A stretch of 64,000 nt of DNA from Thermococcus sp. 2319x1. GTDB lineage: Archaea > Methanobacteriota_B > Thermococci > Thermococcales > Thermococcaceae. The stretch lies in NCBI RefSeq assembly GCF_001484685.1, contig NZ_CP012200.1:56321-120320 (forward strand), given 5' to 3'. This document shows positions 2 through 61,112 of the stretch, piece after piece. The translations under genes were made by a program, and so were the position numbers. Under the pieces are notes generated by a model. That model was not told where the DNA came from. It worked only from the letters and a program-made list of their open reading frames with translations, and did not search any database. Position 1 is the first letter of the stretch. Every line of letters starts with the position of its first letter.

Positions 2-481
2 AGTGCCAGAATTTTGCTTGATAAGTATTACAGGATGGATGACGTTGTTAAGGTAGCAAAAGAAAGACTTGGAGATGAAGCAGAGGTAATTTTGAGGGGA
101 ATTTATGGAGAGAAAGCAATGGGATCAAAAGAAAAGCAGAAGGAGGAGAGGGAGATGGGTTATGTGAAGTTTGATGAATTTGCCAAGCTCGACATAAGAA
201 TCGGGAAGATAATCAGCGTTGAGAATCATCCGAATGCTGACAAGCTCTACGTTGTCAAGGTTGATCTGGGAGACGAGGTTAGGCAACTTGTGGCAGGTTT
301 GAAGGCATACTACAAAAAGGAGGAGCTCCTCAACAAGTACGTTGCAGTTATCACGAATTTGGAGCCAAAGAAGCTTAGGGGAATTGAGAGCCAGGGAATG
401 CTTTTGGCAGCGGATGATGGAGAAACCGTTGCCCTATTAACACCAGAAAAAGAGGTAAAGTTAGGAGCGAAGGTTCGTTAA
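2..481 (+). CDS. metG: Methionyl-tRNA synthetase, C-terminal part (5' end outside window)
   Basis: The frame is open from base 2 and ends with TAA at 479-481. The last ~110 residues are an EMAP/Trbp111-type tRNA-binding OB fold, starting near FDEFAKLDIRIGKI and including PNADKLYVVKVDLG, NLEPKKLRGI and SQGML. In Thermococcales this domain is the C-terminal appendix of MetRS and helps dimerisation and tRNA binding. The preceding residues (ILLDKYYRMDDVVKVAKERL) look like MetRS helical linker, and the frame stays open to the window edge, so I read this as the tail of full MetG and not a free-standing beta subunit starting at the in-frame TTG (14). It converges with the next gene, overlapping it by 4 bases. 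The catalytic domain cannot be seen here. Confidence 0.85.
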   Translation, partial: SARILLDKYYRMDDVVKVAKERLGDEAEVILRGIYGEKAMGSKEKQKEEREMGYVKFDEFAKLDIRIGKIISVENHPNADKLYVVKVDLGDEVRQLVAGLKAYYKKEELLNKYVAVITNLEPKKLRGIESQGMLLAADDGETVALLTPEKEVKLGAKVR

Positions 482-1317
482 GGTTTCAGTTCTACCCAGT
501 TTTCTTTCCTCCCTTTGATTATTCTAACGAGACCTTGTCTTTCGAGGCGCTTGAACATTCTCCATGCCGTGGTCTTTGGTATCCCCAAGGCGGTTCTCAC
601 CTCTGCCTGGCTGGCTCTTCCTCCCTTCTCTAATATGTAGAGTAAAGCCCTCTTTTCGTCTTCATTTAGGTTAAACCTCTCGAGTTTTTTCAAAAACTCT
701 TCCCTGTCTATGTGAAGCTCTTCCTTTGGAGTTTCTTTTTTTCTCCTTTTTATTGCCACAAAGCCGGAAATGGCTGTTATCAAGACCGCTAAAAATGCCA
801 AAACTGGAAAGTAAAAGTCCTTCCTGCCCTCTTCAGCTGCAAATTCAAGGGTATAGGAGATACTCTGGTTTCCCGGGGGCATCGTGATTACATTGGAGGC
901 TATTTTAAGGGGAAGTTCGGATAAATCGACCACAACGGCATTTTCAGGAAGGATGACGTCAAAGGGATATTCCATTGAGACGTTAATAGTCCACACCAAG
1001 CCTTCTTTATACGTCAGATCTGGAGTGTAGTAGGACACATCCACGACTTGAGCATTTTCCACATAAATGATGAGCGATTCATTGTAGACTTCAAAATTAA
1101 GAGGATTGCCGTTTTCATCAACGACCTCCACACCCTCGTAGTTTTTCCCTAAAAGCGGTAGGCCGATTTGGGAGGTGTATTCATCTGGAATCAGCTGGTA
1201 GTGAACTTTAACGTAACCATCCGTGTAGATTGTTAACTCTACCTCTGAAACCGTAAACTGGGCACCGACAACGGGCAGGAGAATGAGAATGCTTATTAGA
1301 GCAAAGGCACGTTTCAC
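478..1317 (-). CDS. Membrane-anchored winged-helix regulator with extracytoplasmic sensor domain
   Basis: 279 residues with a GTG start behind GGGGGGTG. Residues 1-19 form a signal peptide or N-terminal anchor ending VVGA. Residues 20-168 are a beta-rich extracytoplasmic domain with VDENGNPL, YYTPDL and EGLVWTINVS. One membrane helix lies at about 170-189, followed by KRRKK at 190-194 as the cytoplasmic side. Residues 205-279 are a winged helix; the HTH lies near 235-264 (ASQAEVRTALGI, then KTTAWRMFKRLERQGLV). The layout predicts an outside signal passed directly to DNA. Families of this kind are annotated as helix-turn-helix membrane proteins (DUF7343/7345-like), but the ligand is unknown. 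It follows a secreted helical protein by 12 bases, clearly in one operon. A paralogous pair lies at 59.1-60.9 kb, where the sensor lacks the winged helix. Confidence 0.75.
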   Translation of the reverse strand: MKRAFALISILILLPVVGAQFTVSEVELTIYTDGYVKVHYQLIPDEYTSQIGLPLLGKNYEGVEVVDENGNPLNFEVYNESLIIYVENAQVVDVSYYTPDLTYKEGLVWTINVSMEYPFDVILPENAVVVDLSELPLKIASNVITMPPGNQSISYTLEFAAEEGRKDFYFPVLAFLAVLITAISGFVAIKRRKKETPKEELHIDREEFLKKLERFNLNEDEKRALLYILEKGGRASQAEVRTALGIPKTTAWRMFKRLERQGLVRIIKGRKENWVELKP

Positions 1318-1329
1318 TTCTGCACCCCC

Positions 1330-2475
1330 CTAAGAGTTGGCCTTTATAAATTCCTCCACCTCTGCGAGAAGCTTTTCAGCCCTCTGGATATGGACGACGG
1401 CATTGCTGATATCGTTGCGTTTTAATGAAATAATCGCTACAGAAAGCTCATTGACGGCTCCTTTGAGCTGCGCCTCAGCTCTTGCTGTATTTATTCCTTT
1501 CTTCTTTAAAATTGCAATTGCGGTTGTATCCTTTTTTATCCTCTCTCTCAGCTCTTCTAGGGTTTCTTTTATGTTCATGCTCTCTCTTCTAACTCTTTCT
1601 ATCATTCCAAGGAACTTCTGTATTTGGTGGGAATTCTCTCTGATTATCCCTAATGCCTCAATCCATTTTCCTTCTTTTGCTAAGCTTTCGACCTTTATGT
1701 AGATGTTTTTTATCCTCTCTATGCTCTGCTCGGCCTCTTCCACGTTCATACCTCTTGTTTTTGCGTTTTTTACCATTACCTCAGCAACTGCAATACTCTG
1801 GTTGGTCTTTACCAAGAAAGAATTAACGATCCTTTCAGCATTCCTCGAAGCGAGTTCTCTGAGCACTTTTTCTAGTTCTCTATTGAGTTCGGCCCTTTTC
1901 ATTCTGGCAATTTCCATGTTTCTTTTCGCATCTTCTATCTTCTTTGCTTTTAAAGCTTCGAAGACAGTTCTATAAGCATCTTTGGTCTCCTTGTAAGCTT
2001 TTATCAGCTTGTCCGTGTTAACTCCTTCCTTTTCAGCCACTTTTATTACCTTTTCTACGTAGGAGAAATACGCAATGACCCTTTCAGCTTCCTCATTCAA
2101 CTGCTCTCTCAACATTTCTGTACTTTCTGTTTCTTTCAATTCCCTGAGAACTTCTCTATAGTATTTCATAGCCAATAGGGCATCCTGGATTGCATTTTGA
2201 TACTCTCCATTCTGATATTCCAGAGAAGCTTTTTCTTTGAGGTTTTCGGCTTTTTTATAGTTCTCTAAGGTATTCTGGGGCAGTTCGTTCTTTATGGGTC
2301 TTATCCTTGATTCTACAAATTCGCCGAGTTTGGTTAGCTGTGCTATTAGCTCTCCTGCCATACTCTCGTTGCTCTGCTCCTCCAGATATTGGCCGTTGCT
2401 TTGGTTTTGGGCAATGCTAATAGGGATTAGTCCGCCTATTAAAACAAGGATAACCCCAAGGGCACTAAACTTCAT
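1330..2475 (-). CDS. Secreted alpha-helical (coiled-coil) protein, partner of the membrane regulator
   Basis: 381 residues. I chose the ATG at 2475 because GGTGAGAGTG lies just upstream; an in-frame GTG four codons earlier is possible. A signal peptide (hydrophobic GVILVLIGGLIPISIAQ) is followed by about 350 residues of charged, heptad-like helix rich in Glu, Lys, Ala and Arg, with no enzyme motif. Internal repeats are suggested by recurring helical hairpins around EKVIKVAEKEGVNTDKL, EVMVKNAKTRGMNVEE and TAIAILKKKGINTARAE, each ending in a G(V/M/I)(N/D) turn. It is the first gene of a two-gene operon with the winged-helix sensor and has a clear paralogue at 59740-60942. An extracytoplasmic adaptor or sensing partner is an inference. 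I do not recognise a characterised family. Confidence 0.7.
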   Translation of the reverse strand: MKFSALGVILVLIGGLIPISIAQNQSNGQYLEEQSNESMAGELIAQLTKLGEFVESRIRPIKNELPQNTLENYKKAENLKEKASLEYQNGEYQNAIQDALLAMKYYREVLRELKETESTEMLREQLNEEAERVIAYFSYVEKVIKVAEKEGVNTDKLIKAYKETKDAYRTVFEALKAKKIEDAKRNMEIARMKRAELNRELEKVLRELASRNAERIVNSFLVKTNQSIAVAEVMVKNAKTRGMNVEEAEQSIERIKNIYIKVESLAKEGKWIEALGIIRENSHQIQKFLGMIERVRRESMNIKETLEELRERIKKDTTAIAILKKKGINTARAEAQLKGAVNELSVAIISLKRNDISNAVVHIQRAEKLLAEVEEFIKANS

Positions 2476-2643
2476 CACTCTCACCATCGTTAATATGATC
2501 TTGACCTAAAACGAAGGTTTCGAGTGTTCCAAAGCTCTTTTTAATTATGGGGGAGATGAAATCGACGGGATAACCAATCATGAAAAAAGTTCGCAAAATC
2601 ACTTTAAATCTCTTTTTCCCCTAAAAAAGTTAATAACAAAGAC

Positions 2644-59138: not shown

Positions 59139-59711
59139 TCATCGCTTCCAGATGGCAAACCCCAAAATTGAGACCAGCAAAAGCGCCCCTAGTGAAAGGA
59201 TAATTTTTGTTGAGATGCCATTTTCTTTTGCGGGACTTTTAGTGTCTGTTCCCTCTTCAAGGGTGAAACTTACTTCAATTTCTCCCGCTGGAAGTGTTAT
59301 TTTATTGCCCTCAACTTCAAGGGGGACATCGCTCATATCCACCAAGCTTGCTTCCTCCGGCAGTATAACGCTCACCGGATTGTCTGAGCTCAATGAGATA
59401 GTCCAAACAAGGCCTTCCTGCTTAATCAAGTCTGGAGTAGTATAGGTTATCTCCACTATCTGGGCATCTTGAGTGTTCACTGTTATCTCGTTTCCGTTTA
59501 TGTAATATTCAAGGGGATTACCGTTTTCATCGGTAACAAAGACGTCCTCGTAATGATCACCAATCAAAGATAACGTAACCTGCGTTGCATAATCATCAAC
59601 GGGCACTTCAATTTCTACAGTTGCGTATCCGTCTCCGTAGGGGGTTATGTTTATGCTCCGTGCACTTACAAAGGGAATAAAAAGCAAGAAGGCAAGCAAA
59701 GCCTTTTTCAT
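59139..59711 (-). CDS. Membrane-anchored extracytoplasmic sensor domain, no winged helix (paralogue)
   Basis: 190 residues, ATG 59711 behind GGAGGTGG. Signal peptide KKALLAFLLFIPFVSA; ectodomain with TDENGNPL, TYTTPDL, EGLVWTISLS, VILPEEASLVDMSDVPL; one C-terminal helix (IILSLGALLLVSILGFAIW) then KR and stop. Aligns with residues 1-192 of the 478-1317 protein but stops right after the membrane helix, so the winged helix is absent. Paired with the secreted helical protein upstream (28 bases). Whether the C-terminus was lost or never present cannot be told. Confidence 0.7.
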   Translation of the reverse strand: MKKALLAFLLFIPFVSARSINITPYGDGYATVEIEVPVDDYATQVTLSLIGDHYEDVFVTDENGNPLEYYINGNEITVNTQDAQIVEITYTTPDLIKQEGLVWTISLSSDNPVSVILPEEASLVDMSDVPLEVEGNKITLPAGEIEVSFTLEEGTDTKSPAKENGISTKIILSLGALLLVSILGFAIWKR

Positions 59712-59739
59712 ACTTTCCACCTCCATAAAAAATTGGAAA

Positions 59740-60942
59740 TCAGAGGTGCCTCAAGATGAACTCATCCACTCTATGGAGCATTTCTAGGGCGATTGCAAAG
59801 TGCATCTTTGCTTCCGCTGGCTTCTTGTGTTTTAGGAGCTCGATTCCAAGTCTTATCTCTTGTATTGAAGTTTTAAGCTGTAGCTCCGCCTTTCTTGTAT
59901 CTACTCCTTTCTTCTTGAGCTCTCTCAAGGCTTTTGCATCCTTCTGAACCCTGTCGTTAATCTCTCTGAGGAATGCTCTCATGTCTCTCATCTTTTCTTG
60001 GGCTTCTCTTTCGTGGAACTTTCTTTGGATAAATGCCATTGCCCTGTGGAATTCTTTTATGGTCTCCGTGTTCTCCCTCATGACTTGAAGGGCTTCGTCG
60101 TATTTTCCTTCATCCGCTAGGGCTTTGACCTCATCGTAGACTTCTCTAAACGCTTCAAGCCTTTCTTGAAGTTCACTTGCATCGTAGCCCTTTTCTTCTG
60201 CCGTCTCAATTACCTTCTCCGCCATCTCTATTCCCCTTGCACCCTTCTCCAAGAACTCATTTACTATCTTGTCAGCGTTTGCCTCTACAAGTTCCCTTCT
60301 TATTCTCCTTAGCTCCTCGTCTAAAGCTGCTTTTTTCTCCCTCGCAACTTCGAGGTCTTCTTTGGCTTTCTCAAAATCTCTGGCTTTTATGTCCTCTAAC
60401 ACAGTCCTGTAAGCCTCTTTAGTTTCTTGTAAAAGCGCTGTTGCATTCTCTACGTCAATCCCCTGTTTTTGAGCCATCTCTATAGTTCTCTCAGCCATTC
60501 TAAAGTAGCCTTCCATCCTTCTTATCTCTTCCGGGAGCCGTTCTCTTAGCTCCTCTTTTCCTCTTTCAAAGTTCTTCAGGACTTCTCTGTAGTGGTGCAT
60601 TGCCGTTAAGCCATTGATTATGGCATTGTAATAGTCGCCGCTTTCATAGGCAGTGAGGGCATCTTCCTTATACTCTTCGGCCAGTTGGTAGTGTCTCATA
60701 ACGCTTGAGTTATCTGGCAGGTTTATGTTGTTAATTAGTCTTGTTGTTATATTGCTTAATCTTTCGAGGGCTGCAACGATATGTTCGGCTATCCTTTCCT
60801 CCTGCGTTATGTTTTGTATTTCCGGTGGCAAAGGCTCTGTTTCATTTTCTATTGTGGCGTTCTCATCTGCTAGGCTCAAGCCCGCTGGTATTATGCTCCC
60901 CACCAACAGGCCTATTAACACCCAGACCTTCAACCACTTCAT
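59740..60942 (-). CDS. Secreted alpha-helical (coiled-coil) protein, paralogue 2
   Basis: 400 residues, ATG 60942 behind GGTGAT. Signal peptide VWVLIGLLVGSIIPAGLSLA. Then helical throughout: YREVLKNFERGKEELRERL, MAEKVIETAEEKGYDASELQ, DAKALRELKKKGVDTRKAE. Same lengths of hairpin and same turns (GVD, GYD, GID) as the 1330-2475 protein, plus ALRELKKKGVDT versus AIAILKKKGINT. Also matched: LRRIRRELVEANADKIVNEFL versus LEKVLRELASRNAERIVNSFL, shown as the shared IVN(E/S)FL. First gene of the pair; a 16-bp palindrome lies upstream. Confidence 0.7.
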   Translation of the reverse strand: MKWLKVWVLIGLLVGSIIPAGLSLADENATIENETEPLPPEIQNITQEERIAEHIVAALERLSNITTRLINNINLPDNSSVMRHYQLAEEYKEDALTAYESGDYYNAIINGLTAMHHYREVLKNFERGKEELRERLPEEIRRMEGYFRMAERTIEMAQKQGIDVENATALLQETKEAYRTVLEDIKARDFEKAKEDLEVAREKKAALDEELRRIRRELVEANADKIVNEFLEKGARGIEMAEKVIETAEEKGYDASELQERLEAFREVYDEVKALADEGKYDEALQVMRENTETIKEFHRAMAFIQRKFHEREAQEKMRDMRAFLREINDRVQKDAKALRELKKKGVDTRKAELQLKTSIQEIRLGIELLKHKKPAEAKMHFAIALEMLHRVDEFILRHL

Positions 60943-60997
60943 GTTCATCACCATTCCTAACTGGGGCTTTTACCTATTTTAGGAATCCGGTGAAAAG

Positions 60998-61013
60998 AAC
61001 GTTCCGGAACGTT
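60998..61013 (-). promoter_or_regulatory. 16-bp perfect palindrome upstream of the second sensor cassette
   Basis: AACGTTCCGGAACGTT is self-complementary and lies 55 bases before the chosen start of the secreted helical protein, upstream of the expected TATA position. No identical copy was found upstream of the first cassette, which has only partly similar bases (TTTGGAACACTCG). Confidence 0.5.
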
Positions 61014-61112
61014 TCATTTTTTGTGTAAACTTCCATAAACAGCTTTCTACACATACAACCCATTAAAAATTATGGAAATCTGCATGTGAACGATGAGAAA
61101 CTGTATTTTGGA

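What the first reader, a model, noticed from the sequence alone, without database searches (positions are those of the whole stretch)
478..2475. Two-gene envelope sensor cassette: secreted helical protein plus membrane-anchored winged-helix regulator
The second gene joins an extracytoplasmic beta domain, one membrane helix and a cytoplasmic winged helix, a one-component transmembrane regulator. It is always preceded here by a secreted coiled-coil protein, and the pair is duplicated at 59.1-60.9 kb. Together these look like an undescribed envelope signalling system in Thermococcales.
Basis: partly seen in the sequence, partly recalled or inferred. Interest (0 to 1): 0.8.

Follow-up and report, generated by a model that had tools for sequence, protein, structure and literature searches.

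The report
Archaeal envelope-sensing gene pair with operator
Heat-loving archaea of the Thermococcus group carry a widespread two-gene unit: a secreted helical protein and a membrane-spanning gene regulator that probably senses it, with a distinctive DNA switch in front that also appears before a few other cell-surface genes; it looks like an undescribed way for archaea to monitor their cell envelope, and the switch makes the idea easy to test.

Summary
Both genes are real. The regulator at 478-1317 (minus strand) has a signal peptide, an all-beta ectodomain, one membrane helix and a cytoplasmic winged helix. The helical gene at 1330-2487 is a secreted all-alpha protein in the same apparent operon. 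The copy at 59.1-60.9 kb is only partly a duplicate: its receptor ends just after the membrane helix and has no winged helix. In 94 Thermococcaceae genomes, 125 of 144 helical genes are followed directly by an ectodomain gene on the same strand. The pair also occurs in other families of the class, and in Bathyarchaeota.

The main new result is a conserved promoter element before the helical genes: TGRAAC-N4-GTTYCA, then a GTYCC half-site in place of a good BRE, then the TATA box. Of 54 perfect operators in those 94 genomes, 50 lie upstream of helical genes; the other four lie before laminin-G-like surface proteins, an ABC transporter ATPase and a small protein. The HTH-less copy in this window has a perfect operator, so it is probably controlled in trans.

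Best reading: an autoregulated transmembrane one-component envelope sensor, probably an activator, with a secreted partner. The architecture class is known; the system, operator and regulon appear undescribed. Binding and signal are untested.

The parts
478..1317 (-). Transmembrane transcription regulator (TTR): signal peptide, beta-sandwich ectodomain, one TM helix, cytoplasmic winged helix
   Evidence: ORF; Pfam TrmB 7.8e-10, HTH_24 2.5e-8, DUF7343 9.6e-7 on residues 212-277; AF2 mean pLDDT 82.7
847..1257 (-). Ectodomain (residues 21-157), all-beta; fold resembles the N-terminal domain of M1 aminopeptidases and the Ost1/ribophorin I lumenal domain
   Evidence: AF2; Foldseek E 1e-5 to 1e-4, but TM-scores of only 0.3-0.4 over the whole query; no sequence match in the PDB
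745..813 (-). Transmembrane helix (residues 169-191), followed by a basic RRKK stretch on the cytoplasmic side
   Evidence: Hydropathy; AF2 helix; sequence
487..705 (-). Cytoplasmic winged helix (residues 205-277), recognition helix IPKTTAWRMFKRLE
   Evidence: near-invariant positions in alignment A1
1330..2487 (-). Secreted helical partner protein (385 aa), string of helical bundles
   Evidence: ORF; N-terminal signal-like segment; AF2 all-alpha; weak TPR/MIT/YfdX-like matches
2508..2530 (-). Degenerate operator upstream of pair 1; relative to close relatives a 16-bp stretch (CACCGGGTTCCTAAAG), including most of the TATA element, is missing between about 2508 and 2509
   Evidence: Alignment with G075, G078, G085
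59139..59726 (-). HTH-less paralogue of the regulator: signal peptide, ectodomain, TM helix, no winged helix (195 aa)
   Evidence: same truncated form in about eleven genomes
59740..60954 (-). Helical partner paralogue 2 (404 aa)
   Evidence: phylogeny
60975..61015 (-). Intact promoter/operator of pair 2: GAAACGTTCCGGAACGTTCTTTTCACCGGATTCCTAAAATA
   Evidence: the only perfect match in the 1.96 Mb genome

Best explanation
The pair is an autoregulated one-component envelope-sensing system. The secreted helical protein is made and exported; the regulator is a type I membrane protein whose beta ectodomain faces outwards and whose winged helix faces the DNA. In the proposed model the ectodomain binds the helical protein (or an envelope state that the helical protein reports), and this changes dimerisation or exposure of the winged helix. 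The winged helix binds an inverted repeat, TGRAAC-N4-GTTYCA, placed just upstream of an unusually poor TFB recognition element and the TATA box of its own operon, of paralogous helical genes and of a few surface or transport genes. It most likely activates them by helping TFB onto the weak BRE, as TFB-RF1 does; repression by covering the BRE/TATA region is the alternative. The HTH-less receptor of pair 2 shares the operator, so it is switched on together with the system and probably acts as a membrane anchor or a competing (decoy) receptor for the helical protein. Shown here: the anatomy, the conserved linkage, the operator, its restriction to a small gene set, and loss of the HTH in one paralogous lineage. 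Inferred: that this winged helix binds this operator, the direction of regulation, the ectodomain-helical contact, and the signal.
For: Architecture. Linkage: 125/144 helical genes with the ectodomain gene downstream on the same strand; pairs also in families f2 and f4 of the class (L118-L122, L124, L125). Operator: found upstream of helical genes across classes. 48 of 70 upstream regions match the template with at most 5 mismatches, against 0 of 1400 shuffled regions. A strict 31-mer had hits in 21 of 41 genomes and no hit for the reversed control. 50 of 54 perfect operator matches in 94 genomes lie 41-199 bp upstream of the matched start of a helical gene. The strict element is absent from the two Thermococcaceae genomes at least 90% complete that lack the pair, and from the family-f3 genomes searched, which also lack it. 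The other perfect sites precede laminin-G-like membrane-anchored proteins, a DrrA-like ABC ATPase and a ~120-aa protein; in G078 a related helical-TTR pair is directly followed by the same kind of ABC ATPase (L139). Partner contact: two Bathyarchaeota regulators carry a helical insert between ectodomain and TM that scores above all shuffles against the helical family (19.7 and 13.3 bits versus at most 6.1). Trans control: the helical clade containing window pair 2 (18 rows, SH-aLRT 100) has no HTH-bearing partner, yet several of its members keep the operator. Activator reading: the bases before the TATA (GATTC/GGTTC) depart from the BRE consensus VRAAA at three positions, the same layout as TFB-RF1 targets (PMC5937170).
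Against: No binding, expression or mutant data. The operator could belong to another regulator that controls this operon. Some TTR genes have other partners or no detectable operator: in Pyrococcus one class sits behind a DUF134 (HTH) gene, and the metG-adjacent class has a diverged helical partner and no clear operator. The half-site next to the TATA also fits a repressor. The window's own pair 1 has lost the core of its promoter, so in this organism the sensor may be weakly or differently expressed. The fusion evidence is weak and rests on a generic helical repeat. 19 of 144 helical hits have no ectodomain hit downstream (some because the hit was missed or the contig ends; others are true solo genes).
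Confidence: 0.6

Rival explanations
1. Autorepressor version: the regulator sits on the operator over the BRE/TATA region and keeps the operon off; envelope damage or loss of the helical protein from the ectodomain releases it.
For: A GTYCC half-site lies exactly where the BRE should be, so occupancy would block TFB; many winged-helix proteins of the TrmB/MarR type are repressors (general knowledge).
Against: The basal promoter would then have a very poor BRE (three departures from VRAAA) and be weak even when derepressed; the layout matches known activator-dependent promoters.
Confidence: 0.3
2. The operator belongs to a different, cytoplasmic regulator, and the transmembrane winged-helix protein acts elsewhere or only as a protein-protein module.
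For: Genome searches show only correlation; in some lineages TTR genes exist without a recognisable operator, or next to a DUF134 HTH protein.
Against: The operator is found before operons encoding this regulator in Thermococcaceae, in families f2 and f4, and operator-like repeats occur before or near Bathyarchaeota relatives; the strict element is absent where the pair is absent; the recognition helix is near-invariant.
Confidence: 0.15
3. The helical protein is mainly an abundant structural or scaffold protein of the envelope, and the regulator controls its amount without using it as a ligand (signal from something else, e.g. membrane or S-layer state).
For: Solo helical genes with the operator but no receptor persist in several Thermococcus genomes; a helical module is fused to a cell-wall-binding 2 domain in another secreted protein.
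Against: Strict adjacency to the ectodomain gene, retention of an HTH-less ectodomain next to helical 2, and a helical insert inside Bathyarchaeota regulators all suggest direct contact.
Confidence: 0.35
4. Ordinary: a lineage-specific duplicated pair of surface proteins in which the winged helix is a decayed or non-functional tail.
For: The HTH has been lost at least once, in the pair-2 lineage; the pair-1 promoter in this genome is damaged.
Against: The winged helix is the most conserved part of the protein and is kept in most TTRs from several families and Bathyarchaeota.
Confidence: 0.05

Closest known systems
Transmembrane transcription regulators (TTRs), e.g. ToxR/ToxS and TcpP/TcpH; archaeal ArnR (PMC10269533)
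   Same: Single-pass membrane protein with an extracytoplasmic sensor domain and a cytoplasmic DNA-binding domain; ToxR and TcpP work with a partner protein encoded by the adjacent gene
   Different: Here the winged helix is C-terminal of the TM helix, unlike ToxR (N-terminal DNA-binding domain; general knowledge). The partner is a large secreted helical protein encoded upstream, the fold family is TrmB/DUF7343, and the control site overlaps archaeal BRE/TATA
TFB-RF1 regulon of Pyrococcus furiosus (PMC5937170)
   Same: Autoregulated operon; palindromic site at a fixed distance just upstream of a weak BRE and TATA; few targets, including an ABC transporter
   Different: TFB-RF1's motif is TCTGAANTTCAGA, unlike TGRAAC-N4-GTTYCA; I did not compare the two proteins
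CpxP/CpxA (helical periplasmic regulator of a membrane sensor), from general knowledge
   Same: Small secreted helical protein paired with a membrane sensor whose regulon it belongs to, in envelope stress
   Different: One-component regulator instead of a histidine kinase pair; no sequence relation was tested
Pfam DUF7343 (PF24034) winged-helix domain
   Same: 22 of 23 aligned members match it at E<=0.01 (the exception is the HTH-less window copy); the window regulator scores 29.0 against a cutoff of 27.6
   Different: DUF7343 covers only the winged helix and carries no function; the ectodomain and the helical partner match no Pfam family above cutoff
M1 aminopeptidase N-terminal domain / Ost1 (ribophorin I) lumenal domain
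   Same: Ectodomain model resembles this beta sandwich (Foldseek E about 1e-5 to 1e-4)
   Different: No sequence similarity, no peptidase domain; TM-scores of 0.3-0.4 over the query, so only a fold lead

Membership tests
Transmembrane transcription regulator (TTR) as defined in PMC10269533 | A predicted DNA-binding domain in the same protein as at least one TM region | tested here: met
   wHTH Pfam hits above cutoff, TM helix by hydropathy and AF2
Transmembrane transcription regulator (TTR) as defined in PMC10269533 | Controls transcription from the membrane | not testable with these tools
   No expression or binding data; conserved operator is indirect support
Transmembrane transcription regulator (TTR), window pair-2 receptor 59139-59726 | DNA-binding domain present | tested here: not met
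   195 aa ending after the TM helix, no HTH hit
ToxR/ToxS-type regulator-partner pair | Adjacent gene encodes an extracytoplasmic partner protein | tested here: met
   125/144 helical genes adjacent to an ectodomain gene
ToxR/ToxS-type regulator-partner pair | N-terminal (cytoplasmic) DNA-binding domain and C-terminal periplasmic domain | tested here: not met
   Order is reversed: ectodomain first, winged helix last
TFB-RF1-type activator-dependent promoter | Palindromic site at conserved distance directly upstream of a weak BRE and a TATA box | tested here: met
   BRE bases depart from VRAAA at three positions; definition
TFB-RF1-type activator-dependent promoter | Regulator stimulates TFB recruitment in vitro | not testable with these tools
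   Needs cell-free transcription
DUF7343 (PF24034) | Score above the Pfam gathering threshold | tested here: met
   29.0 bits against 27.6; 22 of 23 aligned members match at E<=0.01
TrmB sugar regulators | Winged helix followed by a cytoplasmic sugar-binding domain | tested here: not met
   Only the winged helix matches PF01978; no TrmB equivalog score (20.2 against 650)
CipA/CipB cold-induced secreted proteins | Large solute-binding proteins (94.8 and 79.4 kDa) | tested here: not met
   Helical protein is 385 aa, all-alpha, no solute-binding domain

The most novel reading that the evidence does not exclude
An undescribed envelope-stress regulon spread across Thermococci and Bathyarchaeota: an outward-facing receptor with its own DNA-binding domain, a secreted helical ligand under its own control, and a stable HTH-less decoy receptor, wired together by one conserved operator built into the BRE/TATA region. 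It would be an archaeal counterpart of Cpx- or ToxRS-type envelope surveillance.
Probability: 0.4. Interest if true: 0.82.

Novelty: new variant of a known kind. Interest (0 to 1): 0.66.

Why it matters
To my knowledge little is known about how archaea sense damage or change in their S-layer envelope, and there are few worked examples of signal transduction across the archaeal membrane without kinases. This pair is near-universal in an order with genetic model species (T. kodakarensis carries a helical-TTR pair and a solo helical gene: identified by its genome size). The predicted operator turns it into a testable regulon at once: EMSA, ChIP-seq and reporter fusions can be designed directly from the sequence. 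The HTH-less receptor retained under the same operator would be a natural decoy or feedback device.

Tried and rejected
1) The pair as an intact duplicate: rejected, the second receptor has no winged helix. 2) Thermococcales-only: rejected. 3) Helical protein as CipA/CipB, the P. furiosus cold-shock proteins: rejected, those are large solute-binding proteins. 4) ESCRT link through weak MIT/VPS4 matches of the helical protein: the ESCRT survey describes no such secreted pair; the match is a generic helical hairpin. 5) Thermococcales immunoglobulin gene module (PMC8416519) and the archaeal dark-matter survey (PMC4158269): no matching pair in the passages read. 6) Recognition helix-operator covariation as proof of binding: inconclusive, because families with and without the operator share much of the helix. 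7) PDB fold search of the helical protein: no significant match, only single three-helix modules. 9) Operator-like sites with 1-2 mismatches before a CWB2-helical fusion protein (L200, L201) lie about 120 bp upstream and reversed relative to the usual layout; kept as a lead only. 10) First anchoring script for the promoter logo missed most sequences; redone with a template and shuffles. 11) Literature search for the operator sequence: no relevant paper.

Full report
Observation. The regulator (478-1317, minus) has a signal peptide, an ectodomain, one membrane helix and a winged helix that scores above cutoff for TrmB, HTH_24, MarR_2 and DUF7343. AF2 with a 23-sequence alignment gives a confident beta ectodomain (residues 21-157), a TM helix at 169-191 and a winged helix at 205-277. 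The helical gene (1330-2487, minus) starts with a signal-like segment and is predicted all-alpha. The second locus is homologous (40% and 35% identity), but its receptor is 195 aa and ends after the TM helix, so it has no winged helix. The finding's 'duplicated pair' therefore needs correcting.

Linkage. In 94 Thermococcaceae genomes, 90 have an ectodomain match and 83 a helical match. Of 144 helical matches, 125 have an ectodomain match directly downstream on the same strand, in 76 or more of them within 100 bp. Some apparent exceptions were misses: G001 C11 has an HTH-less receptor that the first search did not report. Others are real: solo helical genes in G015, G024, G028, G033, G070 and G019. 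Many genomes carry two or three pairs, sometimes in tandem (L062; L132). The pair-1 locus is next to metG and a TauE/SafE-like gene in many genomes, and in Pyrococcus a diverged helical-TTR pair occupies the metG-adjacent place.

Reach. A profile of the ectodomain finds relatives in 97 of 115 genomes of the phylum, including families f2, f4 and f5, and in three Bathyarchaeota contigs. In L118, L119, L121, L122, L124 and L125 a helical gene matching the family profile lies just upstream of the receptor. In Bathyarchaeota L117 a secreted helical gene precedes the receptor. In L115 and L116 a helical insert lies inside the receptor, between ectodomain and TM; it scores 13.3 and 19.7 bits against the helical profile while the best of 400 shuffles scores 6.1. 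This is modest, Rosetta-stone-like support for contact, since the repeat is of a generic TPR-like kind.

Operator. Of 70 upstream regions, 48 match a fixed 29-base template with at most five mismatches; none of 1400 shuffled regions does. The template was written after seeing the sequences, so independent checks matter more. A strict 31-mer with up to three mismatches hits 21 of 41 genomes, mostly before helical genes, with no hit for the reversed control. An operator pattern without the TATA part gives 54 perfect matches in 94 genomes, of which 50 are 41-199 bp upstream of the matched start of a helical gene. The four others precede two laminin-G-like membrane-anchored proteins (L194, L195; a third, L198, has one mismatch), a DrrA-like ABC ATPase (L196; L199 with one mismatch) and a ~120-aa protein that also carries the element in three other genomes (L185; L187, L189, L191). 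A PMT-like glycosyltransferase gene has a one-mismatch site (L197). Two complete Thermococcaceae genomes lacking the pair (G074, G077) lack the strict element; G074's only loose hit lies inside a gene.

In this window. The single perfect operator of the genome is at 60975-61015, before helical 2. Helical 2 belongs to a clade (18 rows, SH-aLRT 100) in which no HTH-bearing partner is seen: members have an HTH-less receptor or none (the genus-mates counted as unknown there have receptors of 191-203 aa). Because the only full-length TTR in this genome is that of pair 1, pair 2 is most simply controlled in trans by it. The pair-1 promoter itself lacks 16 bp (CACCGGGTTCCTAAAG) found in three close relatives, removing most of its TATA element; this may be a strain difference or a sequencing error.

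Mechanism. The bases just before the TATA (GATTC or GGTTC) depart from the BRE consensus VRAAA at three positions. TFB-RF1 targets show the same layout: a palindrome at a conserved distance upstream of a weak BRE, with activation by TFB recruitment (PMC5937170). I therefore favour an activator (about two to one), with repression by BRE occlusion as the main rival. The extra half-sites are spaced by about one helical turn, which suggests cooperative dimers (inference). The target set (secreted helical proteins, surface lectin-like proteins, an ABC exporter-like ATPase) points to the envelope. The ligand is unknown; the helical protein is the leading candidate because of adjacency, the retained HTH-less receptor and the Bathyarchaeota insert.

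Known or new. Transmembrane transcription regulators are a catalogued class, and Thermococci are noted as enriched in them (PMC10269533). I found no description of this pair, its operator or its regulon in the open-access library searched; subscription papers were not searchable. I recall from memory a COG for predicted membrane-associated regulators (COG2512) that may include this family; the term was not found in the papers searched, and membership was not tested. The ectodomain model resembles the N-terminal domain of M1 aminopeptidases and Ost1, a fold lead only. Verdict: a new variant of a known kind, with unusually direct tests available.

Noticed in passing
L052, L055, L056, L060, L061, L131 (Pyrococcus genomes): A sub-class of the TTR sits directly behind a 113-115 aa DUF134/UPF0251 protein with a sigma-region-4-like HTH, instead of behind a helical gene; these promoters lack the operator.
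   Followed up: partly
window 2508-2530 and G075, G078, G085 equivalents: 16-bp deletion of the most conserved promoter element (CACCGGGTTCCTAAAG) upstream of pair 1 in this genome only, of the four compared.
   Followed up: yes
L187, L189, L191 (about 1139-1482) and L185 (1549-1920): Uncharacterised ~109-123 aa cytosolic protein with the same operator-TATA element; no Pfam match.
   Followed up: partly
L194, L195, L198: Membrane-anchored Laminin_G_3 (ConA-like) proteins with the operator: likely surface lectin-like members of the regulon.
   Followed up: partly
L139 671-3435; L196; L199: A related helical-TTR pair directly followed by a DrrA-like ABC ATPase in G078; similar ABC ATPase genes in G089 and G093 carry an operator-like site upstream.
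   Followed up: partly
L200 157-1380, L201 1718-2938: Secreted protein joining a cell-wall-binding 2 domain to a module of the helical family, with an imperfect, reversed operator-like site about 120 bp upstream.
   Followed up: partly
L115, L116 (Bathyarchaeota): TTR with a helical module inserted between ectodomain and TM helix.
   Followed up: yes
L048, L049, L050, L064, L148, L149: Solo-type helical genes have the inverted repeat about 11-12 bp further upstream than usual, i.e. about one DNA turn, as judged by eye.
   Followed up: no
G074 and G077 (same genus as the window): Two high-quality genomes lack both the helical and receptor families entirely, a natural comparison for a loss-of-system phenotype.
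   Followed up: no
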